Assembly: GCA_034336665.1 (NCBI GenBank)
Contig: CM067589.1
Span: 6,448,044-6,512,043, forward strand
From: Luscinia megarhynchos
Lineage: Eukaryota; Chordata; Aves; Passeriformes; Turdidae
Length of the DNA: 64,000 nt
Direction: 5' to 3'
Both the position numbers and the translations under genes were made by a program. Of the stretch, positions 18,494-63,814 are shown piece after piece. Below the pieces are notes generated by a model, which had not been told where the DNA came from, made no database searches, and was given only the letters and a program-made list of their open reading frames with translations. Each line of letters begins with the position of its first letter. Position 1 is the first letter of the stretch.

Positions 18494-18505
18494 ATTCCAA
18501 TAACT
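18494..18505 (-). promoter_or_regulatory. Truncated J-delta recombination signal at the gap edge
   Basis: Bases 18497-18505 (minus strand AGTTATTGG) equal the nonamer of the J1 signal at 35347-35355, and 18494-18496 equal the first three spacer bases. The other nine spacer bases, the heptamer and the J itself would fall in the gap. The downstream sequence to about 19175 matches 35343-36020, so this is the same place in a duplicated D-J unit. Confidence 0.8.
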
Positions 18506-18840
18506 CACTCTTTGCTTCAGAGTGCTCAAAAGTGTTGTAAAGCAGGAGATGAAAAGCCAAATATGAGTCCTAATTATCCATGGGTTCAAGTCCATGAGAT
18601 TATCCAGAGGCAGACTTACTTTCAAAACTGGAAAGGAAAAAAAGTTAATAGAATAGTTCCATGATTTCAAATAGCTTGATTGAGTACAGAATTTTCAACT
18701 TCTCCCTTTCTTCTACCCATGAGCTCTTTTATATGTCCAGGATAAAAGGCAATATAGAAATAATTTCTATTTCTCTTCTTAATCATTACAGTCACCGTTC
18801 TCCTTTCTTTCCCAAAATATCTTACCCTTTTCCTCTCTTT

Positions 18841-18923
18841 TGTTTTTGTACAGGTCCCTATGCTGTTCATATCATTGTGGTATCCCAGCCCCAAACACAG
18901 TGATATATTTCATAGCAAAAACT
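18841..18923 (-). other. TRD diversity (D) segment, copy 2, with both recombination signals
   Basis: Read on the minus strand: nonamer AGTTTTTGC (18915-18923), 12-bp spacer, heptamer CACTGTG (18896-18902), D coding TTTGGGGCTGGGATAC (18880-18895, 16 nt), heptamer CACAATG (18873-18879), 23-bp spacer and nonamer ACAAAAACA (18841-18849). A 5' 12-signal with a 3' 23-signal is the arrangement known for TRDD genes, permitting V(23)-D-J(12) joining and D-D joining. The copy at 35691-35774 has the same layout. The three frames give Gly/Trp-rich residues, typical of D segments. Confidence 0.92.
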
Positions 18924-19531
18924 GTCTCTACTTCATGACACAGAATTTTGGATTGTACAGGCAGTCACATGACTTCTTCAGTGGTTTTACACCCAACGTA
19001 CCACCTGAAGAAGCACCATATGGCTTTCAAGGAAGGATCTCAAATAATATCAGAAAAGTTGAGTTGTAAACGAGAACATGGGGATGACATGACACCTCTG
19101 GAAAGTCTGAGGGAGTTAAGCTGGACAGAAAGCAGGAAAATAACCAGTACTTCTTGTGTTATTTCAAAGCATTTCTTTCAATGCAGTCTATTCCCTTCTT
19201 CTCTTCCTGTGGGCATTAGTGGTAGTGTGACAGGGGTCCTGGAATGCGGCAGTCTGTGTCTGGGGGTGCTGGGAGGAATGAATTAAAAGCTGAGGAATCA
19301 GGAGGATTGGAACTGCTCAAATGACCTCCCAACAGGGAAGGTCAGGTGACCTTCCAGCCCAGGGTCGACTGCACCCAGGGATCCTCTAGCATTGGCCTAT
19401 TTTAGATGCCAGTGTCTTTCTTTGCCTCTGTGTGGCTGTTGCTCAGGAATTCGCCCAGGTTAGCAAGGAAATAAATGTACTCTTGGTGAGTTTGTGGCTG
19501 CTCCAGCTGTTGTCTCACCCATGGGGTGGTG

Positions 19532-20350
19532 GCTATCCTAATTTGAAAGACAGGTGTTTGCCAAGGAAGGTGCAAACCTCCCTTGGAATGGAAAACATGA
19601 TCTCCTTCAATCTGAATTATTATAACTTTGAAATTAAGGGGTTTTCAGGCAAAGAGATAGGAAAAGGAACCCATTCTTTACCAGTATGTGTGTGCATAAC
19701 AAGGCAATCAAACAGCAGCACCAGCAGCAGCAGCAAACAGCAGCAGACCCCAGTCCCAGCTGCTCTGGGCTGCAGGCACTTTTCCTTGGGTGCAGTTCCG
19801 GGCACAGCCAGCAGGGGCGCTGCTGGCTCCCGGCCGGGCAGGGCGGGTGTGATGATTGCCCAGCAGGGGGCGCTGTGGCGCGAGCTCAGCCGCGTCTCCC
19901 TCACGCGGTAATGGCGGCTCAGGCGGGGGAGGAGAGAGATGGAGAGATGGAGAACGGCCTTCCTTTTTAAACCCACAGGAGCAGCTGATCCCAGTGACCC
20001 CTGCCATTCCAGCAGCTGCTTCAAAGTTCCTGGTACAGCTCATTTTGCAATCCAGAGGGACACCGGGATCAGCTGCTCCTATGGGCCTGTAAAGGGAGCC
20101 ACTTCTCCATCCCTTTCCCCCAACTCAGCCCCCATCAACAGCGTGAAAAGGCGGCCGAGCTCGACCACAGCGCCCCCTGCTGGGCAATCATCACACCCTG
20201 CCCTGCCCGGCCGGGAGCCAGCAGCGCCCCTGCTGGCTGTGCCCAGAACTGCACCCAAGGGGAAAGTGCTTGCAGCCCAGAGCAGCTGGGACTGGTGTCA
20301 GAGTCTGTTTCATGCCAATGATGGTGGGGTTTTTTGTTTGAGTTTGTGAG
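19532..20350. mobile_element. LTR-derived element with long inverted arms
   Basis: It begins with text related to other LTRs here (TTTGAAAGACAGGTGTTTGCCAAGG near 19537, 'TTATTATAACTTTGAAATTA' near 19615). The later part is a hairpin: 19750-19992 is nearly the reverse complement of 20065-20295, with a 72-bp centre. Outer limits are approximate and no target duplication was found. It may be two LTR fragments in opposite directions. Confidence 0.6.
20065..20295. repeat. Right arm of a ~240-bp inverted repeat (left arm 19750-19992)
   Basis: Matching landmarks: GGAGCAGCTGATCCC at 19978-19992 against its reverse complement at 20065-20079; CCAGCAGGGGCGCTGCTGGC in the left arm against its reverse complement near 20218; and CCAGTCCCAGCTG at 19750 against CAGCTGGGACTGG ending 20295. 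The arms differ by small changes only. Confidence 0.85.
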
Positions 20351-21857: not shown

Positions 21858-21896
21858 AGTTTTTGATCCATTCTGGTACAGAGCTGCTCCAGGGTG
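21858..21896 (-). promoter_or_regulatory. V recombination signal, 23-bp spacer (V at 22 kb)
   Basis: Heptamer CACCCTG at 21890-21896, 23-bp spacer, nonamer TCAAAAACT at 21858-21866. The heptamer keeps the essential CAC. The copy at 46916-46954 has the same heptamer and nonamer. Confidence 0.85.
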
Positions 21897-22954
21897 ATTC
21901 TTGCTCCACAGAAATACGTTGCTATATCCTCTTGCTTTGCTGCCAGGATCTGCAGTGTGAAGATGTTCTCGGAGCTCTCCACTGTTCCCTTAAAGCGATC
22001 TTGGAAACCTTCTCCATAATGATCACCCTGCCTATAAATCCATTCCAGAGAGCTCTGTGGGCCCTGGCGGTACCAGTACATCCAGTACCTGCCCATGGAA
22101 GCCCCCTTCATGCTGCACTGGAAGGTGCCTGGATCTCCCTCTCGCACAGTCAGTTCCCTGGGGAGCTGCTCCAAGACCACCTGGCCAGTGACAGCTGCAG
22201 AGAGCAAGAACAAGCCACAGTCACTGCAAGATTCAGCAAAGGTCAGGGCAATGCTGGTGAGGCTTTGGACTGGCACTGCACCAGTGGGAGGACAAAATCC
22301 TCCTCTTTGAAGCCTGCTGACACTGATGGGCAGAGCTGGTAGCAGCTATCAAGGCTCACAAGGAAGGACATTCCACATTTCCCTCCCTCCTTTTCACAGT
22401 CAGACAAGAAGCCTTTTCTGATTTTCCCCAAAGAAGCACAAAGCATTTGCACCATGTCTTGACAAATCCCTTTATCCTTGCCAAGTCAGGGTGGTGAGGA
22501 GCCCACTCTGCTGTCCCTGAAAGTGCTCTAGGTGAGCCCAGCAGAGACACAGGCCTGTCCCAGGCCATGGGGCTTGTGCCCTGTGCTGCCATCCTGCAGC
22601 TGGTGTGTGCCAGAGGGGCCGCAGTGCCCCAGGAGCAGAGTGTCCAGTGCCAGGGCAAAGCGCTGGGCCCCCAGCTCTGAGTGCAGCAGGGAGGTGCCCT
22701 GCGTGTGCCCAGGCTGCAGAGGAGGCAGCTTGGATGGAGGTGACGAGCTGACAGGCACAAGAGGAGCAGGGCTGCTCTCAGCGTGCTCCACAGGCACGGC
22801 TGGGCAGCTGGAGCCGGGGAACAGGTGCGGCTGCAAGCGCCCAGCACAGCTCCCCAGAGCCCTGCAGGGCACAGGGCTCAGCTCCTGGGGCCAGCAGCCC
22901 TTCCCTGCACTTACCCACAATGGGCAATAAGCCCACGCACAGGGCACTCCACAT
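21897..22954 (-). CDS. TRDV/TRAV-type T-cell receptor variable gene (copy A)
   Basis: Two exons. The leader exon 22915-22954 begins MWSALCVGLLPIV and ends at a GTAAGTG donor; the V exon 21897-22194 follows an acceptor TTGCTCTCTGCAG. The domain has the first cysteine in TFQCS, the FR2 core MYWYRQGPQ, a DRF start of FR3 and YFCGAR at the recombination end. No stop or frameshift is seen, so it looks usable. The V joins D or J by V(D)J recombination to make the antigen-binding domain of a gamma-delta (or alpha-beta) receptor. The paralogue at 46955-48010 has the same leader. FR1 reads LEQ-PRELTVREGD, a conventional V, unlike the VH-type neighbours. Assignment to TRDV rather than TRAV rests on the nearby D-J-C. 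Confidence 0.88.
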
Positions 22955-25003: not shown

Positions 25004-25042
25004 GGTTTGTGTTAAAGCTCATCTGCATTTCCTGCTCCCGTG
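25004..25042 (-). promoter_or_regulatory. VH-delta 1 recombination signal, 23-bp spacer
   Basis: Heptamer CACGGGA (25036-25042), 23-bp spacer, nonamer ACACAAACC (25004-25012). All four VH-delta genes share this nonamer; the heptamer is 4/7 to consensus with CAC intact. Confidence 0.85.
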
Positions 25043-26224
<1,182 letters not shown>

Positions 26225-26250
26225 TCAGTACCAGGAGCACGTCTTGACTC

Positions 26251-28162: not shown

Positions 28163-28167
28163 ATCAC

Positions 28168-31751: not shown

Positions 31752-31867
31752 TCAGAGAAGAAACAGCTTGATACTCATGAGGGTGTTGATGGCGATGCTC
31801 TTTGCCAGCAGGACTCTCAAACCCAGCACAGCCATGGACAGCATGTTCACTCTCTGCCCTTCAGCAT
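31752..31867 (-). CDS. TRDC exon 3: transmembrane segment and stop
   Basis: The exon follows acceptor CTGAGCAG and encodes a short linker, then VNMLSMAVLGLRVLLAKSI, then a short tail ending KLFLL and TGA. The Arg and Lys inside the membrane span are the charged residues that pair TCR delta with CD3. The split codon with exon 2 (G + AT) is in phase. A GGTGAGG sequence follows the stop at once, which fits splicing to a UTR exon. Confidence 0.93.
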
Positions 31868-32207: not shown

Positions 32208-32279
32208 CTTGTGCTGAGGGCTCTGTGCTGTTGCAAACCCTCTCACTGGGCTCTGCCACTGGTTCTTCAGCCTCCTCTT
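32208..32279 (-). CDS. TRDC exon 2: connecting peptide
   Basis: The 72-bp exon lies between an acceptor TCATGCTGCAG and a donor GTGAGTT. It encodes an acidic stretch EEEAEEPVAEP followed by SERVCNSTEPSAQ. The single cysteine is the expected partner for the interchain disulfide, and NST is a glycosylation site. Phases at both ends are 1, matching exons 1 and 3. Confidence 0.9.
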
Positions 32280-32913: not shown

Positions 32914-33190
32914 CTGGCTGTGCTGTCATCGTGCTGTTGTCGAATTTGGCCGTGCAGGTCACCTCTGTGTCGTTTTGTCACACTGACCACTTTAATTGCA
33001 TTGTACAGCCCCTCTGGTGTCAAAATGGATGTGCTCTGTTCATATACGACCTCCTTAGAGGGCATCTCCAAGCTGATGCTCTTTGTAAGGAAGTTCCTTG
33101 CCAAACAAGCTGCTTTCCCATGGCTGCCACCTTCTTCCAGTTTCTTTGATTTCATCACAATGACTTGAGGGATGGAAGTTTTTGGAATAT
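32914..33190 (-). pseudogene. TRDC exon 1: delta constant Ig domain, with a one-base frameshift
   Basis: After acceptor CTTTATAG the exon reads IPKTSIPQVIVMKSKK, then KAACLARNF (first Ig cysteine), SILTPEGLYNAIKVVSVT, and, one frame later, DTEVTCTAKFDNSTM (second Ig cysteine), to donor GTACAG. The frame change falls in a run of four A (minus strand; 32973-32976). The exon has 277 nt; 276 would fit the 2+3n+1 phase needed by J1 and exon 2, so one base is extra. The rest of the exon looks conserved, which suggests either an assembly indel in a homopolymer or a recent break. The domain family (TCR delta constant) is clear. Confidence 0.93.
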
Positions 33191-34803
33191 CTATAAAGAA
33201 AAGCATTGTATGGAAAGGATTGATTTTATTGCAGGCCTGCCGAGTGCTGAACATCTGAAAATTCACATGTGCTCCAGCTGTGACTAATTTGTTACTTTCT
33301 CATTAAATGTCTTTTATGCCATTATTCCTTGCCAATAGAGGTGCAAGTCACAAAAGATAAGTGCTTTAACTAGCAGCCAACTGTCTTACAAGAAAAGTAT
33401 TAGAGTCAAAGGAATCTAGGAGCCACCAAATAATTGTGGTATCATGATTACTTTTTTAACCAAAATAACGTTGCCTCTAGTTCAGGACATATGTGGAAAA
33501 TCAGAGGTGATCTCAAAAACCAGTATCAGCACTTAAATCAAATTAATGACTTGAATTAGAGTAAAAACATGGAACTGGCAGGGATCCTCCTGTGGCCTCC
33601 CTTGTAAGAAAGGGCTCAGCTTATGAAAGGCTGTCAGAAACATCCACAAAGGATTTACATGTTTGCTTTGAGAGGAGCACCCTGAGGGGTCTCTTGGGTA
33701 AAGAGAGGTGCTTGAGGCTTTTCATTTTCCATGGTGTCTGCCTTGCAGGTGGGTTAATATATCCCACAGGTCTAATATTTTGTTCATCCTGGGGTACTGA
33801 TGGAAGTTTGATCAAGGGGCTCTGATTTTAACTCCCTTTCCCCATCAGCCCTGTGGCACTGCTGAGGAGCTGAGGTGAAAGGCAAATCGTGCTCTGCCAC
33901 AACTTCATGGGTCAGCTCTCCTGACCAAACAGGCAGAACTACACACTTGTCCACACCTACAGCAACCAGACACCCAAGAGAAACCAAACATTTCCTTGCA
34001 GGTGTTGTACCACGGCTGGCCAGAGCCTGTCAGTCCTGTGCATTCTGTGTTCTCTGAGAAGACCTTGCAAGGCTTTTCATGTGGTCTCCTCTCCAGGCTT
34101 TCCAAACAGCCACAATACAAACAAGCTGCTTCTCTGCAATAACTTTTGGGGCTAGATCTTCAGCAAGAAATACTGTACACAATGAAATTATATTTCAGAG
34201 AGAATAGATTTGTTTTATCTGACCACAGAAGCCTCATTTGAGTCCCAGTACTTTGCATTTTTTGTCAAATCAGCCATAAATTCCTACTGCGCGCTGGCTT
34301 CTGGAAGGGATTTGTGTTTTCTAGGTTCTGAAAATTTTTTTGAACAAAAAGTTGTACTTCTCCTTCACTTTAGTCTAATAAAGCCACAGGAGGAGTCCTG
34401 AATTCTAAAATGTAATTGGCCTAAAATAATATGAGATGTTCATGCAGTACATTAAAGACCTCTGAAAGAGCAGCCACAATTTCTGAGCGATGCACCTGAA
34501 TCCTTAGGACAACAGAGATAAACATCAGAAACCCTTCTGCCAGCCAACATTCACATTCCTGTAAAAAACCTCAGGGAGACATCAGCATTTACTGTATATC
34601 ATGGAATTCCAAATAATGATAGGAACAACTAAGGCTTCCTATAATCCTTACTCCACACATTGGTCTTTTCAGAGCCCACACAACTTGGCAGCCAATTGCC
34701 TTTCATGCCAGGAGCTCTTGGATATGAGGCACTTGTGAGAATTTAAGCCCAAGGCTGTTTTACCTCCTTCCTCCTCTGTCCCCAGGGCAGTGGAATTACT
34801 TAC
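33191..34803. other. J-C intron
   Basis: No exon was found between the J segments and TRDC exon 1. I scanned the minus strand for F-G-x-G J cores and found only the two J entries given here. Confidence 0.5.
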
Positions 34804-34855
34804 CTGGGGACACTGCCAGTGTGGTGCCCGTGTCAAACCAGATCTGCTCAAAGCA
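34804..34855 (-). pseudogene. TRD joining segment J2 (probably defective)
   Basis: The minus strand gives FEQIWFDTGTTLAVSP followed by a proper donor G|GTAAGT at 34799-34803. The layout matches a J, but the invariant F-G-x-G reads F-D-T-G, and upstream only a poor 12-spacer signal can be drawn (AGTTTTGAG, 12 bases, CTGCCTG). It lies 420 bp 3' of J1 and 1.6 kb 5' of TRDC exon 1. It may be a decayed J or one that is rarely used. The upper limit is approximate. Confidence 0.65.
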
Positions 34856-35275
34856 GGCAGTTACAGACCTGTCTCAAAACTCCTCAGCACTGTGAGCTCT
34901 TCTCTGAGCTCTGCAGTCCTGCCCCAAGTCAGTCAGTGGAAGTGCACTGGAGAATTGGACACTTGGCAGAAGATTTGAGCCAGAGTGCTGCCCAAACAGG
35001 GGAATAAGTTATCCCGATCTACGTAGTGCCCTGCTGGTGTTTGGGGATCATGGAATAATGGTGCTATGCAGAGTCAGCCCAGTTGTTCCTGGGAAACCTT
35101 TCTGAGCAGATCCAAGCTGCTGATGATTTGGCTTGAAAGCCTGGCTGGAATGAGAGTGCACTCATGGGATTATTGCAGATGAAAATCCATACAGTTAGCC
35201 CAAACCATTAAATTCCTTTTTTCACGTCCACCTCAATTTTAAATGAAATTTTAGAAATAAAGAAATGTCACTTAC

Positions 35276-35327
35276 TTGGTAGAACTGTGAGAGTCGTCCC
35301 CGGTCCAAATATAAGCTTCTCTGTGCT
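35276..35327 (-). CDS. TRD joining segment J1
   Basis: It encodes STEKLIFGPGTTLTVLP, with the F-G-P-G bulge, then one base and the donor GTAAGTG. Length 52 nt, phase 1, compatible with TRDC exon 1. The preceding 12-spacer signal is at 35328-35355. It joins to D (23-signal) during V(D)J recombination and supplies the last strand of the V domain. Confidence 0.94.
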
Positions 35328-35690: not shown

Positions 35691-35774
35691 TGTTTTTGTA
35701 CAGGTCCCTATGCTGTTCATATCATTGTGGTACTCCAGGCCCCAAACACAGTGATATATTTCATAGCAAAAACT
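35691..35774 (-). other. TRD diversity (D) segment, copy 1, with both recombination signals
   Basis: Minus strand: nonamer AGTTTTTGC (35766-35774), 12-bp spacer, heptamer CACTGTG (35747-35753), D coding TTTGGGGCCTGGAGTAC (35730-35746, 17 nt), heptamer CACAATG (35723-35729), 23-bp spacer, nonamer ACAAAAACA (35691-35699). It lies about 400 bp 5' of J1. The flank to 36020 is duplicated at 18494-19175. The D differs from copy 2 by one indel and substitutions, so the two loci add different D sequence. Confidence 0.94.
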
Positions 35775-37654
35775 GTCTCTACTTCATGACACAGAATTTT
35801 GGATTGTACAGGCAGTCACATGACTTCTTCAGTGGTTTTACACCCAACGTACCACCTGAAGAAGCACCATATGGCTTTCAAGGAAGGATCTAAAATAGTA
35901 TCTGAAATCTTGAGCTGCGACTGAGAACTTGGGGATTACATGACACTTCTGAAAAGTTGGATGGAGTTAAGCTGGATAGAAAGCTGGAAAATTATCAGTT
36001 TGTCATTTCAAAGCATTTCTGAAAGTTCTTCTGACTTGCAGGAACCTGTCTGCTTTTTGCCCTTTGTTTCTGCGCTCAGAAGCAGGAGGAACGTGCCCTC
36101 TGGGCTCTTAGAATTGGTGTCTGAGGATCATTTAGTACATTAGAAAGTCTTTATGTTGTTTTAGGTAAGAGGAGAAAGTTGGCAAAATGATTGTTGTGTA
36201 GAGGCACAGAAACCTTGGGAGTGAGGATCAAAGAATAAAGGAGGTGTTGCACATTGACCAAATCCTTTATGTATTCAACTTCTGTATCATAAACCCTTGA
36301 TGGCCAGCATCAGACTCAACTTCTGAGACTCTGCAGTTTCAAGAGCCCATCCTGGTCTTCTGTAGCAAAGAATGGGCTTGTTGAGTCTTTGCCCATCAGG
36401 AATGTTGGTACAAAACAAGTGAGGAATAATAAGAACAGGACAGGCTTCAAAAAATGAAAAAGCAAAGGGCTGAAAGGGATGCACTGTGAGAGTGTGCATG
36501 CACATGAGGAATATCTGTGGGGTAAAAGAAAATTGGTTGCATCTAAGGTGTTGCTTGGGGTGAAATCAGCAGGAAAGGCCTTTGCAGGGTTTACAGGAAG
36601 GTTTATTTCAGCCACGCATGAATTCAGAGTTAAGGGAACAAAGGCGAGGGCTTTTTGGGTGGGTCCAGGTTTAGCACATGGGATGAGCAGGAGGGAAAAG
36701 CCTCAGGGACCAATTACTAAGGGACATGGGGCTGCTACAAGGGAAGGGCCAAGGCAAAGGACCAACAGGAAATTAGGGTGGAAGTGAGGGAAAGGTTAAC
36801 AGACAGGGAAAGGGTACGGGGTTTGTTTTAACTGGGAACTGGGTCTCCACAACCCCCCTTTTCTTTATTAATTAAGAAGGCTTTTTCAAGAATATTAAAA
36901 TTAAATTATTAAGGTAACTAAAAAGCACAAAATAAAACAATTTTTAAAATGCAAGCTATTTTTTTGAGTCCTTAGTGTAAAAAGAAATTTTTTAAGCATC
37001 TTGGAACTGGTAGGAAAAGGCATGAAGTTTTTCAGCAGGGCTTGTCAGGAAACTGAGGCAGGAAAGGGATTCTTCAGCATGGACTGGCACTCTGGTAGCT
37101 GTTAGTAATGTGGTTAGCAAAATGGAAGTGCTGTATCTGTTGAGATTCTAAATAGAAATCATTAATTTTGAAGAAAAAACAAAGATTGTTACTTTGAGAA
37201 ATTTTTCTTTTTTCTTTCCCCACCCCCCAAATTATTCCCCAATTTGTATTAAAAAGAAATTTTGGGAAAACAGATTGGTGGCTGGGTAGCAAAGGCAGGG
37301 AGAAGCATGGCAGTGGGAGAGAAACTTTGGAAGGGAAAGGGGGTTAGGAATTTGAGGAAACATAAGAAATGAGTAATTGGATTTGGGGAAATTTTGAAAG
37401 GACTTATTTTGTGGATGGATAAACGGAAAAGAGGGAGGGAAGTAGGGAAACAATAGGGATTGGGGGAAGGCACTTATTTGTTTGGCAGGTTTTGCAGATG
37501 GAGGATTAGACTTTTTGTTGTAGGACAGGTGAATGGTCTTTGCTGCTGGTTTTTCTTTCGGGTTTGTGCTGTAACTTAAAGGCTGTTGGCTTTGGTTGTT
37601 GTGTAAAGGACAAGGTTTTTTAGTAGCTAAAAAATAACTGCAGTTTGGTGCATA

Positions 37655-38307: not shown

Positions 38308-38960
38308 AGTTTGAAACTCACCACAGTAAGATTAAAAACAGTCTTGGGCTGGTTAATGTAGATGCATTTACGGAAAAGAGTCCCGATTCGAAGCGCCATT
38401 TGTTGCATCAAAGGTGTTGCTTGGGGTGAAATCAGCAGGAAAGGCCTTTGCAGGGTTTACAGAAAGGTTTATTTCAGCCACGCATGAATTCAGAGTTCAG
38501 GGAACAAAGGTGAGGGCTTTTTGGGTGGGTCCAGGTTTAGCACATGGGATGAGCAGGCGGGAAAAGCCTCAGGACCAATTACTAAGGGACACGGGGGTGC
38601 TACAAGGGAAGGGCCAAGGCAAAGGACCAACAGGAAATTAGGGTGGGAGTGAGGGAAAGGTTGACAGACAGGGAAAGGGTACGGGGTTTGTTTTAATTGG
38701 GAACTGGGTCTCCACAAAAATCATCTGGGCTTCTGGGAAATGACCATGGCTGAGTGCCTTTACAGTGCCTGTGCAGAAACACATGGAGTAGAGGAGAAAA
38801 CACGAGACGTCAGAGCTCCACCAGTCAGTGCAGGGCAATGGAGATGCTGAAGGAGAGCAGAGAGAAATGGTGGGACAGCTCACGTGAGGCAAGAAGGGAA
38901 ATGTGTGGTGCAGTGCAGATCAGGGCACATGGGCAGAGCTCCTCTCCAAGGGAAGATCCT

Positions 38961-39790: not shown

Positions 39791-42217
39791 AATCTGTGGG
39801 CTGGAGGCAGAGCTGTGGGATCATGGAGATGTGGTGGGAGACCTTCCAGGAGCACTGCAGTGACTGAAGCCAGGCTTCAGGGAAGACAGGCTGGGAAGGC
39901 AAGGGGTGGGCATTGTCCTTTCTCTGAGAGAACAGCTGGAATTTGTGCTTTGGGGTGTGCAATGAGCCAGGATGGGTCAGGATTAGAGGCCACATCAGCA
40001 ACACTCTGGTGGGTGGCTGCTACACATCACCTGATGGGGAAGAAAAAGGCAAGTTTGAATGGGACATTCCCTTGCTCTGCTCCTCACGGGTGCATTTGAG
40101 TACCCACTTGTTCAACTGGAGCTGGTGGTCAAACATCTAAAATTATCTGTTTGCAAGAGCCAAAATCTCAGGTTGAACGGTAAAGAAATTGGTCTTGGTA
40201 AAAATGTTTTTTCTGATGTTTGAGTAATTCTGGGAACCAAATTCATGCATGTGCACAGAGTTGTCTGAGGAAGAGCAAACGAGGTGGGGCCAGCATGTTT
40301 CCTCCTTCAAGAGAAGGGAGGGACTCAGTTTGTGTGTGGTGGTTCAGTTGTTTTCACTCACTGTGGTACGTAGTTCACACTGTGCTAGACAGTTCTACAA
40401 AATCATTTGGGGTTTTTTTTTCAGTGTCAGGTGATGTCTTCTCTTTCATGCCTTTGAAGTGCTGGCTCTTCCTCTACATTGCTCTACCTCTGAACATTTA
40501 ACACTGCTCCAGAGGATGCTTTACACAAAAAATAACACCTGGTTATGGATGCCTTGGAGACAGTACAGGTGATCATAGAAAATCAGATACTGAAAGTGAA
40601 ACAGTAAGTCACTGTCCATCCACTATGGACAGGATAGCTAAAAGCAGTGATTTGAAGAGAGCTGGAATATCTCCCTGGGGAAATCCCTGGGCTGCTGACA
40701 CCTACAGAAAAATAGGGAGGTGACAGAAGAAAGCAAGTGGTATTATCTTTGTATTTGTCACTTTTGGCAGTGTTGTGTTCAATGGCTCTGACATCAACCC
40801 ACTGCAGTAATTCTTCCATCAAGCCAAAGTTGGGAATTGAGGCAAAGCCTGGGGACAACTGCCTGACCCTCTGGCATCTGTAGCTCCTGTGTGGGATGCC
40901 TTGGGCACTGTGCTCAGGAACACAAGCCCAGGGATGCATTTGCACAGGTCTCCTTATGTCTTTCATGAAAGCCTACACTACTAAAGAAAGAAATGAATGC
41001 TCAGTGCTTAGAAGAAGAACAACTGTATTTATTTACATGGAGCCAGTGCAGATGCTATAAGTGCATATTATATTATTGGCTTTTCACAGATACTAAAATG
41101 AATGCTATATGTGTAATGTTAGAAAAATTTGCTGTATTAATATAGTTTCTTTTATTTCTGCTATTAAAAAACCTTGGAAATAGTAGTGTGATAAATATAT
41201 TTTTCCTGGACTATAGCACGATGATGTAAAAAGCTCTTGTTTATGAAACTAACTCAAAAAAAAATGGTAACATATAATCAGGAAATCCTTCACCTGCTAG
41301 GATTATCCTATCTGGATGAAGAGAGTGGTGACAGACACCAGAACCCCCAGAGAAGGAATTTATTGATCATCTGGGACAAGACAGAGCCAAAAAGAGAAAT
41401 AAAAAATGTTGATTTACAGGATGGAAGGGGGGGGATGTTGGGGAACTCAAAAGGAATATTTTTGAATAATACATGAAAGTCTATGAATATGCAACATGTT
41501 GACGCATTTAAAGAAGTGTTTCCTGAGTTAGGGGGTGCTCTTGGCTGAATGCCAAGCATCGAGTTGTATTGACCCTTTGCTTTATTGTCTTTCTCTCCTA
41601 TCTGTCATTTTATTAAACCTTTTAAAATTTACCAGGAAAGTGAACCTCATTTTTCACAGCAGAGGAGTTTTTCATTGTGTCCTGGGAAAGTCCATCTTAA
41701 CAGTGCAGTTCCTTGTGCAGTGCCACTCTTTCCTCCGATACAATTAATTGACTATTGGTTTGTATTCCTGCAATGTTATTGTGAGACTCCCTAAACATCA
41801 TGAAATATCCAAATGCAGATGAGTTCCATGTAAAAATTGTGGCTCTTTCAGGGCTCATTTTGTTTCCTTGTCACAATTTAATCACCAATGGTAACTAAGC
41901 ATCAGACAGCTGCTTGCTCTTTTCCACCTGTCTTAGATGGGACAGAGAATTAGAAAGGTAAAAGTGACAAAATAACTTGAGAGCTTAATTCCACCCTCTT
42001 TCCCTGGTTCTTTCTGCCTGTGGGAGATATTGAGAAGGAAGGAGTTAACAACACATTAATGGTTTGGGGTTTGCTTGTGGAAGACTGCCGTTGTTATTGC
42101 TGTAGCACCTCTGCATCTGTTTCTGCAAAAGACAGCTCAGACTACTCTTGACAAGTCTGGGAAGAGCCTTGCCTTGCAGCAACCACAAAAGATCTGGCTA
42201 GATTAAAGCCCCTCCTT
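39791..42217. other. No gene recognised between D1 side and the nearest V
   Basis: Mostly AT-rich; scanning both strands gave no V, J or constant-like exon and no clear LTR ends. Confidence 0.4.
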
Positions 42218-42256
42218 CCATTCTGTGCCGGCCCTGCCTGCGTTTCAAGCACTGTG
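42218..42256 (-). promoter_or_regulatory. V recombination signal, perfect heptamer, 23-bp spacer
   Basis: Heptamer CACAGTG (42250-42256), 23-bp spacer, nonamer ACAGAATGG (42218-42226). It is the best heptamer but the weakest nonamer of the V signals here. Confidence 0.8.
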
Positions 42257-42584
42257 CCCTTTTCAAGTTCTCTCATGCTGCAGAAATAGGTGGCTGTGTC
42301 TGCAGCTGCTGGCGAGAGCAGTTGCAGCCACAGCTGGTTCCTGGAGGGGTCTGCAGAGCTGTTGACCCGGGTCTGGAAGGGTGCAGCGATGTGCTGGAGC
42401 TGTGTGAAAGGATACTGCATCACCAAGTGCTGCAGCTCTTTGCCAGGAGTCTGCCGGATCCAGTCCCACGCGTAGCTGCTGTCGGTGATGGCTACACCAG
42501 AGATGTGACAGGTGAGCGAGACAGACTCCGAGATCTTCCCTACTGCAGGGCCTGAGGCCTCCGTCCTCACCCGAGAAAGGCCAC
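42257..42584 (-). CDS. Second-type VH-like TRD variable exon
   Basis: The V exon follows acceptor CCTGGGGCTGCAG. It reads SESVSLTCHISG (first cysteine), YAWDWIRQTPGKELQHL in FR2 and TATYFCSMRELEKG before the heptamer. W-I-R-Q-T-P-G-K-E-L is a heavy-chain-like FR2 of another clan than the four VH-delta genes (W-Y-R-Q-A-P-G-G). The frame is open. The leader exon was not placed with confidence: a GGTGAGC donor lies near 42818, but no hydrophobic ATG-led exon ends there. It is the nearest V 5' of D1 (6.5 kb). Whether it is transcribed cannot be seen. Confidence 0.85.
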
Positions 42585-43173: not shown

Positions 43174-43212
43174 GGTTTGTGTTCAACCTCAGCTGGATTT
43201 TGTGTCTCTGTG
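43174..43212 (-). promoter_or_regulatory. VH-delta 2 recombination signal, 23-bp spacer
   Basis: Heptamer CACAGAG (43206-43212; 6/7), 23-bp spacer, nonamer ACACAAACC (43174-43182). Confidence 0.9.
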
Positions 43213-43885
43213 CGAACAGCACAGAAGTAGCGGGCACAGTCCCCAGCATGGAGGAGGTGCAGGCTGAGAGATGCCAGAGAGTGTGAATTGTCCCTGGACG
43301 CTGTGGCTCGACCTTTCACTGCTGACCCAAACTGAATCTGAGATGAGTAATGGCTTATCCAGGACACCCATTCGAATCTGCCTCTGGGTGCCTGACGGTA
43401 CCACCGAACATAATGATTCTCGAAGGTGAATCCGGACCCGCGGCAGGAGAGGGTCACGGAGTCCCCGGGCGCTCGCAGCCCTCCGCCGGCCTCCTGCAGC
43501 CTCGGCTGTGCCCAGAGCCCTGCGGAGGGAGAGCGCAGCAATCGGGCAGGGGCGAGCACGGCCCGAGGCCGCTGTCCCGGGGTCCCGCTGCCCTCGGCCC
43601 GGCACAGCCTCAGCCGCACCTCGCTTCTCCGGGAAACCTCCCGTGCCCGGGGTGATGCCCTGCGAGCGCTCCCGGGGCTGGGCCGCTCCTGCTTCAGCTC
43701 TTGCGGCCGAACCCGCGGGCAGAGCCGGAGCCTGTCCCTGTCCCTGTCCCTGTCCCCGTCCCTGTCCCTCTCCCGTCCCCGTCCCTCCCTCCCCGCCCCG
43801 CTCGCTGCCTCCCCGCCCGGCTCTCACCTGCCGGCCACAAGGCCAAGGCCAAGGCCAGCAGCCCCGGCCCCAGCCCGGCCGCCAT
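43213..43885 (-). CDS. VH-delta 2: antibody-like TRD variable gene
   Basis: Leader exon 43828-43885 is identical in protein start to VH-delta 1; V exon 43213-43519. FR1 matches the others; FR2 is VRWYRQAPRGRFEWVSW, and the end is GDCARYFCAVR. The extra cysteine three residues before the second Ig cysteine replaces a Ser that the paralogues have. The frame is open and the signal is good. The leader intron has the shortest hexamer run of the four. It lies 5' of D1-J1-C and can join by deletion. Confidence 0.92.
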
Positions 43886-46915: not shown

Positions 46916-46954
46916 AGTTTTTGATCCATTCTGCTACAGAGCTGCTCCAGGGTG
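46916..46954 (-). promoter_or_regulatory. V recombination signal, 23-bp spacer (V at 47 kb)
   Basis: Heptamer CACCCTG (46948-46954), 23-bp spacer, nonamer TCAAAAACT (46916-46924), as in the copy at 21858-21896. Confidence 0.85.
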
Positions 46955-48010
46955 ATTCTTCCTCCACAGTAATATGTGGCTGAATCCCCTTGCTTTGCTG
47001 CCAGGATCTGCAGTGTGGTGCGAAAGCTCTCCACTGATCCCACAAAGCGTTCGTGGAAACCTTCTCCGTAGATATCACCCTCCATATAAATGCATTTGAG
47101 AGAGCCCTGTGGGCCCTGACGGTACCAGTACATGAAATATATCCACATGCCAAGTCCCTCCTTAACACCGCACGGGAAGGTGACTGCATCTCCCTCTCGC
47201 ACGGTCAGTTCCCTGGGGTGCTGCTCCAACTGGCCAGTGACAGCTGCAGAGAGCAAGAACAAGCCACAGTCACTGCAAGATTCAGTAAAGAACAGGGCAA
47301 TGCTTTTTATGCTTTGGACTGGCACTGCACCAGTGGGAGGACAAAATCCTCCTCTTTGAAGCCTGCTGACACAGATGGGCAGAGCTGGTAGCAGCTATCA
47401 AGGCTGACAAGGAAGGACATTCCACATTTCTCTCTCTCCCTCCTTTTCCCTGTCAGACAAGAAGCCTTTTCTGATTTTCCCCAAAGAAGCACAAAGCATT
47501 TGCACCATGGGTTGACAAACCCCTTTATCCTTGCCAAGTCAGGGTGGTGAGGAACCCACTCTGCTGTCCCTGAAAGTGCTCCAGGTGAGCCCAGCAGAGA
47601 CACAGGCCTGTCCCAGGCCATGGAGCTTGTGCCCTGTGCTGCCATCCTGCAGCTGGTGTGTGTGCCAGAGGGGCCGCGAGTGCCCCAGGAGCAGAGTGTC
47701 CCGTGCCAGGGCAAAGCTGGGCCCCCCAGCTCTGAGTGCAGCAGGGAGGTGCCCTGCGTGTGCCCAGGCTGCAGAGGAGGCAGCTTGGATGGAGGTGACG
47801 AGCTGACAGGCACAAGAGGAGCAGGGCTGCTCTCAGCGTGCTCCACAGGCACGGCTGGGCAGCTGGAGCCGGGGGAACAGGTGCGGCTGCAAGCTCAGCA
47901 CAGCTCCCCCAGAGCCCTGCAGGGCACAGGGGCTCAGCTCCTGGGGCCAGCAGCCCTTCCCTGCACTTACCCACAATGGGCAATAAGCCCACGCACAGGG
48001 CACTCCACAT
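46955..48010 (-). CDS. TRDV/TRAV-type variable gene (copy B)
   Basis: Leader exon 47971-48010 (MWSALCVGLLPIV), V exon 46955-47243 after a CTCTCTGCAG acceptor. Domain landmarks: TFPCGV (first cysteine), FMYWYRQGPQG in FR2, ATYYCGGR at the end. It is open and differs from copy A in the CDR1/CDR2 loops (YMEGDIYGEGF for YRQGDHYGEGF), as expected for selection or drift in binding loops. It also has two residues fewer at the FR1 start and Cys (SLKC) in place of Trp (SLEW) after FR2. Confidence 0.88.
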
Positions 48011-49030: not shown

Positions 49031-49782
49031 GGGGTTAGCCTGAGATTAACTCAGTTGTTTAGAGCATGGCATCATTAGTGCCAGGACCACTGGTTTGGTC
49101 CCTGTACATGGTTCATGCACTTAGGAGCTGGATTCAGTGATCCCTGTGGGTGCCTTCCAACTCCCAATATTCTTTGGTTCTGTGATATGCCAGGCTCCCT
49201 AGAGACACAAGCCAATTGAATATTGGTCTGGTTTGTAGAAAAAGGGACTGAGGGGCTGCTTCATCCTTCTCTCATCTTGGTAAGGAGGGAAATAGAGTGG
49301 GATGTTCTCCTTGGCATGAAGTGAGAGGTTGTGTTACAGTGGTCAAGAGTTGCACCAGAGGAGGTTAATGGGGGTATATAGGAAGCGTTTTTTTACTGAG
49401 AGTTGTCAAACATTGGAACAGGCATCCTGAACAGGTGATCAATGCCCACATCCTGACAGTATGTAAAAGAAATTTAAACAACACCCATGCAGTACAACAA
49501 GAAACTTTATTCGTTTGAGGCCTGGAATGGGCAGGCAGTCAGACTATGTGGTTGCTGTAGCTTTCTTCCAAGTGAAACAATCTTTTTTCTGTTCTCTCCC
49601 AACACTCCTCCTCTTCTCTGCAAGCCCCAGGAGCAGTGAGATCCCATTTCCCTGACCCCAGGCACAGCCCACTCACTGACTGTCCCTTGCATGGGCTGGA
49701 ACCCACGTGAACATGCAGGAGGGGAAGAAGCTGATGGAGTTCAGGCACACCCCAAATGTCTCTCTCTGGACCCTCCAGGGTG
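49031..49782. other. No gene recognised
   Basis: Sequence between the duplication block and a V remnant. 49036-49180 has a tRNA-like look (AACTCAGTTGTTTAGAGCATGGC... CACTGGTTTGGTCCCTGTA) and may be a tRNA-derived remnant, but no cloverleaf could be closed. Confidence 0.35.
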
Positions 49783-50072
49783 CAGTAATAGAGTGCCCTG
49801 TCTCCCAGCTCCAGCCTGCTGATGGTCAGTGTCCCAAAGTTCTGGACAGCACAGCAGGAAAACCTCCTGTGGGCCAAAGGGGCTGTGTGGCTGCAGGAGC
49901 CTCCACAGCCCTGGCACTGCAGCACTGCAGGGCTTCACCAGGACACTGCTGGCACCAGGCCATGTAAATATAGGAGGCTTTGGGGCTGTAATTGCAACAG
50001 AGGGCCCCAGTCTTCCCTGCTGGGACCACACTGCAGAGCTGGTTGCTTGCATCTCATCACCTTGAAATACAC
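49783..50072 (-). pseudogene. Broken TRAV/TRDV-type V exon
   Basis: After acceptor TTTCTTTCAG (at 50073) the three frames give in turn VFQGDEMQA, then ALCCNYSPKASYIYMAWCQQ, then NFGTLTISRLELGDRALYYC. These are the FR1, first cysteine to FR2, and FR3 parts of one V. At least two frame changes separate them, and no acceptable signal follows the last cysteine, so it is a pseudogene. The wording differs from every other V here. Confidence 0.8.
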
Positions 50073-50483: not shown

Positions 50484-50522
50484 GGTTTGTGTTAAAGCTC
50501 AGCTGGGTTTCCTGTCCCCGTG
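50484..50522 (-). promoter_or_regulatory. VH-delta 3 recombination signal, 23-bp spacer
   Basis: Heptamer CACGGGG (50516-50522; 5/7), 23-bp spacer, nonamer ACACAAACC (50484-50492). Confidence 0.87.
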
Positions 50523-51039
50523 TGAACAGCACAGAAATACCGAGCAGAGTCGTCGGGGTGCAGGGTGAGCAGGGAGAGATATGCCTGGGACAGGGAATTG
50601 TCCCGGGACATCTTTGCCCGACCCTGCACTGACTGGTCAAAATGAAGAATTGTCGGATCATAACCAATATAGGACACCCACTTCAAGCTGCCTCCAGGTG
50701 CCTGGCGGTACCAAAAAATTGCGAAATTCCTAAAGGTGAATCCGGATCCGCGGCAGGAGAGGGTCACGGAGTCCCCGGGCGCTCGCAGCCCTCCGCCGGC
50801 CTCCTGCAGCCTCGGCTGTGCCCAGAGCCCTGCGGAGGGAGAGCGCAGCAATCGGGCAGGGGCGAGCACGGCCCGAGGCCGCTGTCCCGGGCTCCCGGTG
50901 CCTCCGGTCCGGCACAGCCACAGTCACAGCCCCTGTCCCTGTGCCTTCCCCGGGCTTTGCCCGTGTTCCCTACCCTGTCTCTGCCCCTGTCCTTTCCCCA
51001 GTCTTTGCCCTTGTCCTCGTCCCTGTTCGTGCTCCTCAA

Positions 51040-52557: not shown

Positions 52558-52596
52558 GGTTTGTGTTAAAGCTCATCTGCATTTCCTGCTCCCGTG
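52558..52596 (-). promoter_or_regulatory. VH-delta 4 recombination signal, 23-bp spacer
   Basis: Heptamer CACGGGA (52590-52596), 23-bp spacer, nonamer ACACAAACC (52558-52566), the same as VH-delta 1. Confidence 0.85.
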
Positions 52597-53115
52597 GGAT
52601 GGCACAAAAGTACCGGGCAGAGTCCTGAGCTTGCAGGGACCTCAATGAGAGATCAGCCTCGGACCGGGAATCGTCCCGGGAGATCTTGGCCCGACCCTCC
52701 ACTGCTGACCCGTAGTCCTCTATAGTGCCCTTGGGGGAACTGATCAAGGACACCCACTCCAGGCTGCCCCCGGGTGCCTGGCGGTACCAGTAAACAAAAT
52801 AATCCCTAAAGATGAATCCAGATCCGCGGCAGGAGAGGGTCACGGAGTCCCCGGGCGCTCGCAGCCCTCCGCCGGCCTCCTGCAGCCTCGGCTGTGCCCA
52901 GAGCCCTGCGGAGGGAGAGCGCAGCAATCGGGCAGGGGCGAGCACGGCCCGAGGCCGCTGTCCCGGGGTCCCGCTGCCCCCGGCCCGGCACAGCCACAGT
53001 CACAGCCCCAGTCCCTGTGCCTGCCCCGGGCTTTGCCCGTGTTCCCTACCCTGTCTCTGCTCCCGTCCTTTCCCCAGTCTTTGCCCTTGTCCTCGTCCCT
53101 GTTCGTGCTCCTCAA

Positions 53116-56699: not shown

Positions 56700-56738
56700 A
56701 GATTTTGTACGAACGGAAATTTAGCTTCTCTCAAGGTG
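56700..56738 (-). promoter_or_regulatory. V recombination signal, 23-bp spacer (V at 57 kb)
   Basis: Heptamer CACCTTG (56732-56738), 23-bp spacer, nonamer ACAAAATCT (56700-56708). Confidence 0.82.
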
Positions 56739-57315
56739 GTGCCTCAGAGCACAGTAGTAAATGGCCGTGTCCTGAAGAGAGACTCTTGCTATTTCTAAGG
56801 GGGCTGTTTTATTTTTGTAGACCACCATCGAGAATCGGCCACTGCGGTATTTGTCATTCTCTGTATGTGCTTGCAAGAGATATAGCAAAGTTCTTCCCGG
56901 GGGCTGGCGGTACCAGAAGAAGTTCAATTTGGTGAGACTCTCCTTAGTGCTGGACTGGCAAGGAAGAACCACTTGCTGTCCAACTCTGGCTAGCACCTCA
57001 GGGAAGGATTGCTTCAGATCACCTCCAACAAGACCTGCAACACAGGCATAAATGTGTCTGCAGAGAAGTTTGCTTCCTTTTCTCACTTGCTCTGTGTTTG
57101 AGACTGCCCCCATCTTTGCTGTCTTTCCAAAGAAATGGAAAGTTCAGATATCTACATCCATCCCCCTTCTACATTTCTCCCTGACCTCATGCTCTTGTTT
57201 TCAGACACTTACAAATAACTTGCTAAAAACCATGAGAGACAACGGGAAGGACATGAATGCACCCACCTGACTGGATTAGCAGGATGCACGCTGGCACAGC
57301 CGTGGTGAAGATCAT
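56739..57315 (-). CDS. TRDV/TRAV-type variable gene (57 kb)
   Basis: Leader exon 57267-57315 (MIFTTAVPACILLIQS, donor GTGGGTG), V exon 56739-57034 after CTGTGTTGCAG. Domain: LARVGQQVVLPCQ with the first cysteine, NFFWYRQPPGRTLLYLL in FR2, RFSMVVYKNKTAPLEI in FR3, TAIYYCALRH at the end. Open frame, so apparently functional. The CALR ending is typical of conventional alpha/delta V genes. No close paralogue in the window. Confidence 0.9.
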
Positions 57316-60440: not shown

Positions 60441-60450
60441 AAAGTCCATG

Positions 60451-61545: not shown

Positions 61546-61810
61546 GGGAGGGGGAGAAGGTTCTAAGTGCAGGGAGGCTGGGACTGTGATCAGTTGTCAT
61601 CTGGACTGGGAACCTGGGCAGCAGCTGCACAGGAGCTGGTGGCTCTCTTTGATCCCTGGCAAGATCAGGCCAACAAATCCCCACACATCTCTGCAGAGGT
61701 TCCACCTCCTGGCCCTGCATGTTTTTTGACTCACTCCTGATGTGGCAACAGGCCACTCATCATGTATCCCTGTGTTTTCTTCCCTCCTGCCCTCTCTCCA
61801 CGTGCCACTC

Positions 61811-62140
61811 ATGCCCCAAGACATGCCCTGCATAGAAAAGCGCCAGCCCTGCAACCCTTGCTGCCAGCCCTGCGGCCCCTGCCCGCTGGCCAACAGCTGC
61901 AATGAGTGCTGTGTCAGGCAGTGCCAGAGCTCCCACGTGGCCATCCAGCCGCCTGCTGTGCTGGTGACCCTGCCCGGCCCCGTCCTCAGCTCCTTCCCAC
62001 AGAACACCGTGGTGGGATCCTCCACCTCCGCTGCCGTTGGCAGCATCCTCAGCTCTGAGGGAGTGCCCATCAGCTCCGGGGGCTTTGACCTCTCCTGCAT
62101 CACCAGCTGCTATGGGGGCAAAAGGTGTCCTCCATGCTAA
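61811..62140 (+). CDS. Feather-type corneous beta-protein (beta-keratin)
   Basis: An intronless coding exon for 109 residues. The core matches the avian beta-keratin filament region: [41 protein letters not shown] and [20 protein letters not shown]. Cysteine-rich ends are seen ([12 protein letters not shown] at the start; [10 protein letters not shown] at the end). It lacks the long Gly/Tyr repeats of claw and scale types. The N-terminus [11 protein letters not shown] differs from the usual Met-Ser-Cys or Met-Ala-Cys start. It is a structural protein of feather or skin corneocytes. It stands alone among T-cell receptor V genes and on the opposite strand to them. Confidence 0.92.
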
Positions 62141-62967
62141 AGCCACTGGTGCAGCCCTCACCAAGACCCCCAGGAACCCAGAAGTTGATGCTGGACCAAG
62201 GACAGAGCTCCTGGCCATGGAATTCAGAGGTGCTGAGTATCCAATGCTGCCCTTCCAAAGGAGGGCAGCTGAGAGTCTCTGAAACTCTGAATGCCCAGTG
62301 TTTGACTTCCCTCACCCTCTCTCCCACCTCTCTCGTCTTCTGTACTTTTGTATTGGAGGAACCCTAAGCCAGAGCTACCAAGCCCAGACAAGAACAGGGA
62401 GTGGGAGTAATCCTTCATTCTCTTCCTAGGAATCCTCTGACCATGGGCTTTAAACTGTTCTGACAGCTACTGAAGCCACACAGAATTCCTTGGAGACCTG
62501 CTGGAGCCCACAGCCCCTTCCCATGGGCACACAAACCCTGCAGACCTCTAGCTCTTTAGGGCAACCTTGAAAACTGATGCTCAACCACTCAACAAGAAGG
62601 AACCTCGCAGCCTTTGAGGCTGAGTGTCAGTGGGTCCAGCTTTCACACTGTCTCCTGGAGTGAACTCCAAGGATTCTGAGTTCCATAAAACAAGTTTGTG
62701 GTCTCAACACTGAGACATTGTGAGGAGCGCTTGAAGATGTCAGGACCCTGCATTCCCATCGATTATGAGTGGTGAGCTTGTAGTTGATTGTTGTTGCCAA
62801 TGAGTGGTTGATGCCAGTAGTGAGATGGTGCCGGTATCGGTGTCGGGATCGCCCCCTGCTGGTCGGGGCCGAGCGGGGCGAGGCGGCCCCGGCGGGCGGA
62901 GCGGCAGCGCCCCCTGCTGGCCGCGGGCGGCGCTGTGCCCCCGGCCCCGCCCGGCCCCGCCCGCGGC
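62141..62967. other. Keratin 3' flank, no gene
   Basis: The probable 3' untranslated region of the beta-keratin gene and spacer to the last V. No exact AATAAA was noticed directly after the coding region. Confidence 0.4.
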
Positions 62968-63006
62968 GGTTCGTGCCCGGCCGCAGCCCCGGCTCCTCTG
63001 CCCGTG
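62968..63006 (-). promoter_or_regulatory. V recombination signal, weak, 23-bp spacer (V at 63 kb)
   Basis: Heptamer CACGGGC (63000-63006; 4/7), 23-bp spacer, nonamer GCACGAACC (62968-62976; 6/9). The spacing is exact but the match is poor. Confidence 0.6.
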
Positions 63007-63814
63007 GCCCAGCGCGCAGTAATACACGGCCGCGTCCCCGCGCCGGGGCCGCCCGAGCCACAGCGCGCTCCAGCGCCGATCTGCCGACACCAACAGCCTT
63101 CCTGCAACGGCCGGAACATCCTTGGACGTTCCGGCAGCGTATGTGAGCAATTCGGGGCTTTGTCCCGGGAGCTGACGGTAGAAAAATGTTAATTCCAGCA
63201 TCTGTATGCTTGGATGTGAGCAGTTGATTCTGATGCCGGTGCCCTCGGTGGTCTCCAGGAATGGCTCCTGCTGCACCCGAGCTCCGCCTGAAGCCACTGC
63301 CGGGAACAGAAAAAGGACAAACCTGAAATCCCACATTGCACAGCTACAAAGAAAAAAGCCCGCATGCACAGAGACGGTGAGGAAAACAATTCCCAGAAGA
63401 TTTCAAGACACGCAGGAGTGGAAGTGTCCATTAGTCGTTTGTGGAAAGATGAATGGCCGAATAACATGACAGTCACTGGACACCGGCGGGAGGTGGGAGA
63501 AAGCATGAAAAGACGGAAAAGTTAGAAGGGGTAAGGACTGACTTTGTAAGTTATAAAGAAGGAATGCTTGTGCAGGGATGACCAGGGAATAGAATTCGGG
63601 GACTTCTGTGGGAGAGTAAGATGAAGAAGAAGGAGGGATGAAGAGGAGAACAGTTGGAAGGGAGAGGTGTGTGTGAAGCAGGCAGGCAGGACGGCAGCCT
63701 GGAGGGACGTGCGGGATGAGCCCAGCCCCGGCCGCGGCCCCTTGGCCGCCCCCCCCGCGCACCGAGCAGCAGCGCGGCCAGCGCCGCCAGCCCCGCGCCC
63801 CGACACCGCCGCAT
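63007..63814 (-). CDS. TRDV/TRAV-type variable gene (63 kb)
   Basis: Leader exon 63763-63814 (MRRCRGAGLAALAALLL, donor GTGCGCG); V exon 63007-63296 after TTTCTGTTCCCGGCAG. Domain: TGIRINCSHP with the first cysteine, LTFFYRQLPGQSPELL in FR2 and DAAVYYCALG at the end. The usual core Trp of W-Y-R-Q is Phe (F-F-Y-R-Q). An alternative start inside the V exon frame (MWDFRFVLFLFPA) would also give a signal peptide without splicing. The region is very G/C-rich. The weak signal and the missing Trp make full function uncertain. Confidence 0.85.

What the first reader, a model, noticed from the sequence alone, without database searches (positions are those of the whole stretch)
18494..63814. Two tandem V-D-J(-C) units of a T-cell receptor delta locus with mixed V types
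In transcription order the minus strand holds V genes, D1, J1, J2 and C-delta (63.8-31.7 kb), then more V genes (VH-delta 1 and a conventional V), then D2 and a gap-truncated J signal. V genes between a C-delta and a further D are not the canonical alpha/delta layout, where J-alpha follow C-delta; I saw no J-alpha. This suggests duplicated TRD clusters, with antibody-like and conventional V genes in each. Separate VH-delta clusters are known in galliform birds; a tandem mixed form is, as far as I know, not standard.
Basis: partly seen in the sequence, partly recalled or inferred. Interest (0 to 1): 0.9.

Follow-up and report, generated by a model that had tools for sequence, protein, structure and literature searches.

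The report
Duplicated songbird T-cell receptor delta cluster
In what looks like a songbird genome, the genes for one chain of a T-cell receptor, including antibody-like pieces, appear to have been copied as a block, so that a second set of pieces begins after the first set ends; similar repeated blocks are known in other animals, but I found no description of this one in birds.

Summary
The three D segments score above anything in 400 random sequences. "J2" lacks a recombination signal. The C-delta is a bird-type TRDC, grouping with Sturnus and Catharus, but carries one extra base that shifts its frame.

Unit 2 is a diverged copy of parts of unit 1 and probably not a haplotype copy. Its J body and C are unseen. 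Public records of other passerines support the layout: Nesospiza has three TRDC on what appears to be one contig, Melospiza has V genes apparently on both sides of J-C-delta, and a Hirundo prediction runs from C-delta exons into such a V.

Most likely this is a tandemly expanded TRD region, each unit carrying a VH-delta/V-delta pair. Multi-C-delta loci with VH-delta are reported for alligator (recalled abstract), and tandem clusters for marsupial TRM. I call it a new variant of a known kind; the second C-delta and the surroundings remain unproven.

The parts
62743..63402 (-). V63: open frame with a conventional TCR V exon; best PDB match a TCR alpha chain; weak 23-RSS at 63006
   Evidence: Pfam V-set 17.9 bits, below cut-off 26; PDB 6lir TCR alpha 108 bits; RSS heptamer 4/7, nonamer 6/9
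56724..57044 (-). V56: V exon, TCR or antibody type not settled, 23-RSS at 56738; leader candidates doubtful
52568..52897 (-). VH-delta 52: antibody-like V exon, leader ATG at 53276, 23-RSS (CACGGGA-23-ACACAAACC)
50495..50824 (-). VH-delta 50, leader ATG at 51169, 23-RSS at 50522
46930..47259 (-). V46: conventional V-delta-type exon, leader ATG at 48010, 23-RSS (CACCCTG-23-TCAAAAACT)
   Evidence: paralogue of V21
43185..43514 (-). VH-delta 43, leader ATG at 43885, 23-RSS (CACAGAG-23-ACACAAACC)
42244..42573 (-). V42: second kind of antibody-like V (listed best PDB matches are antibody heavy chains and constructs, two named IGHV4), 23-RSS at 42256 with a perfect heptamer; no leader found by my scan
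   Evidence: a Sturnus prediction P0008 joins this V type with a J and C-delta
40366..40377 (-).
35730..35746 (-). D1 (TTTGGGGCCTGGAGTAC) with 5' 12-RSS and 3' 23-RSS
35276..35327 (-). J1 (STEKLIFGPGTTLTVLP) with 12-RSS and splice donor
34800..34887 (-).
   Evidence: bounds approximate
32914..33190 (-). C-delta exon 1 (Ig domain); one extra base near 32971 shifts the frame as assembled
32208..32279 (-). C-delta exon 2 (connecting peptide)
31752..31867 (-). C-delta exon 3 (transmembrane segment, stop directly after it)
25014..25343 (-). VH-delta 25: antibody-like V downstream of C-delta; leader ATG at 25850; mosaic of VH-delta 43 (5') and VH-delta 52 (3')
21872..22201 (-). V21: conventional V-delta-type exon downstream of C-delta; leader ATG at 22954; 23-RSS
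18880..18895 (-). D2 (TTTGGGGCTGGGATAC), a diverged copy of D1, with both RSS
18494..18505 (-). Start of the J 12-RSS of unit 2 (nonamer plus three bases), cut by the gap
   Evidence: D/J block 93.3% identical to 36020-35344
18394..18493 (.). Gap of 100 N; the J body and any C of unit 2 would lie here

Best explanation
This is part of a passerine T-cell receptor delta region that has grown by tandem duplication of whole blocks. Unit 1 reads V...V-D0-D1-J1-C-delta, and a second unit starts right after it with a VH-delta/V-delta pair, D2 and a J. Signals follow the 12/23 rule of TRD: V with 23-RSS, D with 12-RSS then 23-RSS, J with 12-RSS. So V-D-J joining by deletion is possible within each unit (read from anatomy, not from transcripts). 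Inferred: V genes of unit 1 can join D/J of unit 1 and be spliced to C-delta 1, or join D2/J of unit 2 and delete C-delta 1. V genes of unit 2 can, by deletional joining, use only D2 and the J/C of unit 2. If the frameshift in C-delta 1 is real, the C of unit 2 would be the one that yields a complete chain. Antibody-like and conventional V genes travel together as a pair, so each copied unit offers both kinds of binding domain.
For: All elements lie on one strand of one contig without N from 18494 to 64000. C-delta is TRDC by sequence: all 22 PDB matches listed are TCR chains, nearly all named delta or TRA@ (weak, E 0.02-0.05), 89 of 99 candidate proteins match at E up to 0.01, the named ones mostly bird TRDC, and the transmembrane exon is conserved. 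D2 and D1 have identical RSS and related cores; the D/J block is 93.3% identical over 686 aligned positions, the V46/V21 block 92.9% over 2517, the VH-delta 52/25 block 86.8% over 1565. D scores exceed all of 400 random sequences. Melospiza melodia: V (EK904_011301), J-C-delta (011302) and V (011304) all list contig length 21,085. The Hirundo rustica prediction P0010 runs from C-delta exons 1-2 into a V of the V21 type. VH-delta followed by a V21-type V in one prediction: Oenanthe P0141, Mycteria P0140.
Against: No J body and no C of unit 2 are visible. The two contigs flanking the gap may not belong together. C-delta 1 is frameshifted as assembled. No transcript was seen. 'One contig' for Nesospiza and Melospiza is inferred from equal contig lengths, and position from tag numbers. 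The Hirundo, Oenanthe and Mycteria rows are gene predictions, which may mis-splice. Among the 120 rows listed, four other birds with two TRDC rows (Pitta, Herpetotheres, Rhynochetos, Sakesphorus) have them on contigs of different length, so they may be alleles or fragments; most named species there show one row.
Confidence: 0.8

Rival explanations
1. Assembly artefact: 26.2-18.5 kb is the other haplotype of 53-35 kb, placed in tandem by mistake.
For: A gap follows directly; the 1.3 kb upstream of V21 is about 98% identical to that of V46, and the 5' part of VH-delta 25 about 99% identical to VH-delta 43. V loci can be very polymorphic.
Against: No N between unit 1 and unit 2; 7-13% divergence in long blocks; the gene content differs (no counterpart of VH-delta 50, V42 or D0 found in unit 2); Nesospiza, Melospiza and Hirundo records point to the same kind of layout.
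Confidence: 0.1
2. Ordinary TRA/TRD locus with one C-delta: some V genes, a D and a J relic simply lie 3' of C-delta, and J-alpha follow in the gap.
For: No C of unit 2 seen; the J of unit 2 is unseen apart from its nonamer; 'J2' suggests that J relics occur here.
Against: V21 and VH-delta 25 are not inverted and lie upstream of a D with two good RSS; a passerine relative appears to have three TRDC in one contig.
Confidence: 0.08
3. A separate second TRD locus like that of galliforms and duck (TCR delta 2), outside TRA/TRD.
For: VH-delta genes joined to a C-delta are the mark of that locus; the duck paper mentions a second TCR delta locus in zebra finch.
Against: Several V genes of mixed type instead of one VH-delta; the stop lies directly after the transmembrane segment, while duck C-delta 2 has a 62-residue tail; V63 is TCR-alpha-like.
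Confidence: 0.1

Closest known systems
TRA/TRD locus of chicken and duck
   Same: Conventional V genes, C-delta of three exons (duck), TRD-type RSS
   Different: Passages read: duck has C-delta inside the TRA locus and VH-delta in a separate locus; chicken has delta genes nested between V-alpha and J-alpha plus a separate VH-delta cassette. Here V genes of both kinds lie in the TRD array, and further V and D follow C-delta
Galliform/duck TCR delta 2 locus (VH-delta cassette)
   Same: Antibody-like V with 23-RSS, D with 12/23-RSS, J with 12-RSS, C-delta
   Different: Single cassette with a long-tailed C-delta 2 there; several V of mixed types and a C-delta without such a tail here
Chinese alligator TRA/TRD loci (Wang et al. 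2020)
   Same: From a recalled abstract: many VH-delta, eight D, five C-delta in two TRA/TRD loci
   Different: The paper was not held, so gene order could not be compared
Marsupial and monotreme TCR mu (TRM)
   Same: Tandem V-D-J-C clusters with antibody-like V in the opossum
   Different: Different constant gene, and a further V (Vj or V2) within each cluster; here a C-delta and, as J1 splices directly to it, one V per chain
Xenopus TRD with VH-delta
   Same: VH-delta and conventional V-delta in one TRD locus
   Different: The VH-delta-using part is inverted relative to the rest in frogs; here all on one strand

Membership tests
TRD (T-cell receptor delta) locus | TRDC constant gene | tested here: met
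   frameshift by one base as assembled
TRD (T-cell receptor delta) locus | V 23-RSS, D 12/23-RSS, J 12-RSS | tested here: met
   9 of 9 V have a 23-spaced best candidate (many heptamers poor, V63 weakest; no null model for the V search); 3 D; J1
TRD (T-cell receptor delta) locus | Rearranged transcripts | not testable with these tools
   no transcript data
Antibody-like VH-delta genes | V closer to antibody heavy-chain V than to TCR V, linked to C-delta | tested here: met
   VH-delta 25: of 60 listed of 11850 PDB matches nearly all are antibody-derived, one is a TCR mu chain. V42: the 60 listed of 7727 are antibody chains and constructs. Top scores are inflated by multi-domain constructs. VH-delta 52, 50 and 43 were judged by similarity to VH-delta 25
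Canonical TRA/TRD layout | J-alpha directly after C-delta | tested here: not met
   C-delta is followed by VH-delta 25, V21, D2 and a J signal; no J-alpha found in the window
Galliform/duck TCR delta 2 | Single VH-delta cassette | tested here: not met
   nine V of mixed types
Galliform/duck TCR delta 2 | Long cytoplasmic tail | tested here: not met
   stop directly after the transmembrane segment against 62 residues in duck
Galliform/duck TCR delta 2 | Unlinked to TRA | not tested
   own-genome search did not complete
Tandem V-D-J-C cluster organisation | Two or more complete V-D-J-C units in the same orientation | tested here: inconclusive
   unit 1 has all parts; unit 2 is cut at its J; Nesospiza suggests several TRDC in one contig
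TCR mu (TRM) | C-mu and a further V within the cluster, before C | tested here: not met
   the constant gene is TRDC; J1 splices directly to C-delta in frame

The most novel reading that the evidence does not exclude
Songbirds carry a true cluster-type TCR delta array: repeated, self-sufficient V-D-J-C-delta units, each with a paired antibody-like and conventional V, so that one chromosome can rearrange more than one delta chain and a failed or frameshifted unit can be bypassed by using the next. Units recombine with each other (VH-delta 25 is a mosaic; the V21/V46 exon is 84% identical inside a block otherwise 95%), which keeps making new V genes.
Probability: 0.4. Interest if true: 0.7.

Novelty: new variant of a known kind. 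Interest (0 to 1): 0.5.

Why it matters
Songbirds make up a large share of bird species, and I found little in print on their T-cell receptor loci. A delta locus that is copied as whole units with both V types would show how antibody-like V genes spread and persist in T-cell receptors, a step proposed for the origin of TCR mu. It would also raise a testable question: whether one songbird T cell can keep two usable delta rearrangements on one chromosome. For genome annotators it may explain odd predicted proteins that fuse C-delta exons with a downstream V, or VH-delta with a conventional V.

Tried and rejected
Haplotype copy: weighed and held unlikely (see rivals). J2: rejected as a functional J. 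Stork (Mycteria) tags as proof of V downstream of C-delta: not used, because the direction of the numbering is unknown. Olfactory receptor next to TCR as evidence of locus ends: not used, because it lies beyond the gap; [quoted passage not shown] Left contig against right contig: five short matches of 55-128 bases, none recognised as a TCR piece. Rfam: no match. Pfam on ten further open frames, seven of them in the left contig: four matches, all below cut-off. dN/dS: VH52/VH25 dN 0.129, dS 0.114; V46/V21 dN 0.172, dS 0.210. In V46/V21 dS is raised too, which fits conversion from diverged V genes as well as selection, so no selection claim is made. VH-delta 25/52 shows no exon-versus-flank contrast (88.5% against 87.2%, p 0.57), and in the V46/V21 block the last 100 bases outside the exon are also only 79% identical, so the exon is not the only divergent place. 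First random controls printed zeros that looked too good; a rerun with a planted control gave some random hits, and its numbers are the ones used.

Literature: nine answered searches listed no paper whose title or abstract start describes a tandem TRD array in passerines. Several lists were capped (20 of 2,397; 15 of 656; 20 of 25; 20 of 430), and the library is open-access only. Passages, not whole texts, were read in PMC5278385, PMC12529555, PMC7615758, PMC10972964, PMC12698447, PMC13128417, PMC8559430, PMC11754216. Not held: PMC3402333, the DOI 10.4049/jimmunol.2000257, and a DOI that I recalled for the galliform second-locus paper. So what those papers say about zebra finch or alligator gene order is recall or second-hand.


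Full report
Observation. The window has a single run of N, 100 bases at 18394-18493, so 18494-64000 is one contig. On its minus strand nine V exons are readable, and a short V fragment lies at 49776-49865. Eight of the nine pass the Pfam V-set cut-off; V63 does not, but matches a TCR alpha chain in the PDB with 108 bits. For each of the nine the best recombination signal candidate is 23-spaced and starts 7-23 bases after the second cysteine. The heptamers are often poor (for example CACGGGA, CACCCTG), and I have no null model for this particular search. Leader candidates were found for seven of the nine (those of V56 doubtful), none for V63 and V42.

In 400 random sequences (200 mononucleotide shuffles, 200 first-order Markov) composites of 23 or more arose in 10, none above 24. 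The controls had printed zeros; one search replaces them. D1 and D2 share identical signals and differ in the core. J1 (35327-35276) has a 12-RSS, an FGPGT motif and a splice donor. After D2 the sequence continues like unit 1 up to the nonamer of the J signal and three more bases, and then the gap begins.

C-delta. The 22 PDB matches of exon 1 are all TCR chains, nearly all named delta or TRA@, but weak (E 0.02-0.05). The large protein search gives 89 matches among 99 candidates, the named ones mostly bird TRDC. A human TRDC transmembrane segment finds one strong place in the window, 31856-31755. Exon borders with splice signals are 33190-32914, 32279-32208 and 31867-31752. J1 splices in frame into exon 1. 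As assembled, one extra base near 32971 shifts the frame and gives an early stop in exon 2; whether this is a sequencing error or a lesion is open. In a tree of 46 TRDC rows the window groups with Sturnus, Catharus and two unnamed rows (97/95 support), while the highest pairwise identity is 88% to Sterrhoptilus. The bird is therefore most likely a passerine near starlings and thrushes (family names from my own knowledge).

Relation of the units. Downstream of C-delta follow VH-delta 25, V21 and D2. Blocks of unit 2 match unit 1: V21 region to V46 region 92.9%, VH-delta 25 region to VH-delta 52 region 86.8%, D/J block 93.3%. No counterparts of VH-delta 50, V42 or D0 were seen in unit 2. VH-delta 25 is a mosaic: its 5' part to the end of framework 1 is about 99% identical to VH-delta 43, the rest follows VH-delta 52. 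In the V46/V21 block the V exon is 84% identical and the rest 95% (p 2e-11), with about 98% over the first 1.3 kb but only 79% in one 100-base window after the exon. The VH-delta 25/52 pair shows no exon-flank contrast. I read this as exchange between units and among V genes. The high identity upstream of V21 also keeps a small chance for an allelic copy.

Other birds. A Hirundo prediction reads C-delta exon 1, exon 2 and then the start of a V21-type V. Oenanthe and Mycteria predictions read VH-delta followed by a V21-type V; as Mycteria is a stork, the VH-delta/V-delta pair is not confined to passerines. A connecting-peptide insert (GFGEPNRTRTES) is shared by one Nesospiza TRDC, an Agelaius one and an unnamed one, which suggests C-delta copies older than these species. 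Among the rows listed four other birds (Pitta, Herpetotheres, Rhynochetos, Sakesphorus) have two TRDC rows each on contigs of different length, which is no evidence for tandem copies, and most named species show a single row.

Mechanism. The signals allow ordinary deletional V-D-J joining. V genes of unit 1 can reach the D/J/C of either unit, V genes of unit 2 only those of unit 2. This is inferred from anatomy. D0 and D1 would allow joins with two D segments. The antibody-like V genes and the conventional ones would feed the same C-delta. If the frameshift of C-delta 1 is real, complete chains would need the C of unit 2, which I could not see.

Comparison. The duck paper describes C-delta within TRA and a separate VH-delta cassette, the chicken paper delta genes nested in TRA and a separate VH-delta cassette (passages). 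The window differs in V content, in lacking the long C-delta 2 tail, and in the V-V-D series after C-delta. The alligator has several C-delta and many VH-delta (abstract recalled, paper not held); TRM has tandem clusters (passages). Nine literature searches, several with capped lists and all in an open-access library, gave no description of this layout in passerines. I therefore rate it a new variant of a known kind, with the second C-delta and the linkage to TRA as the open points. The own-genome search that might have settled both did not answer.

Noticed in passing
8401-9396 (+): Intact olfactory receptor-like open frame (Pfam 7tm_4, 136 bits) on the contig left of the gap; no second copy in the window by tblastn.
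   Followed up: partly
49776-49865 (-): Short V fragment resembling V56 (26.9 bits), probably a relic.
   Followed up: no
19705-20340: Long imperfect palindrome between V21 and D2; paired arms of 34-86 bases, 77-100% complementary.
   Followed up: partly
38960-39416 and 25557-25751: Tandem arrays: TGGGT, about 92 copies, upstream of D1, and CCTGTC, about 32 copies, between leader and V exon of VH-delta 25.
   Followed up: no
36532-36852 and 38398-38717: A 320-base direct repeat, 96% identical, upstream of D1.
   Followed up: no
near 32971: One extra base in C-delta exon 1 breaks the frame, while the nine V exons and the olfactory receptor are open frames.
   Followed up: partly
42244-42573 (-): V42 resembles antibody IGHV4-type heavy-chain V, a different kind from the four VH-delta genes; a Sturnus prediction joins this type to a J and C-delta (P0008).
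   Followed up: partly
VH-delta 52, 50, 43, 25: Leader and framework 1 are almost identical in all four genes, while the rest of the V exon differs strongly.
   Followed up: partly
proteins P0048, P0185, P0017: A shared insert in the connecting peptide of C-delta marks a C-delta subtype in several records.
   Followed up: no
12708-13217 (-): Very weak reverse-transcriptase match below Pfam's cut-off (14.5 against 29.6 bits).
   Followed up: no
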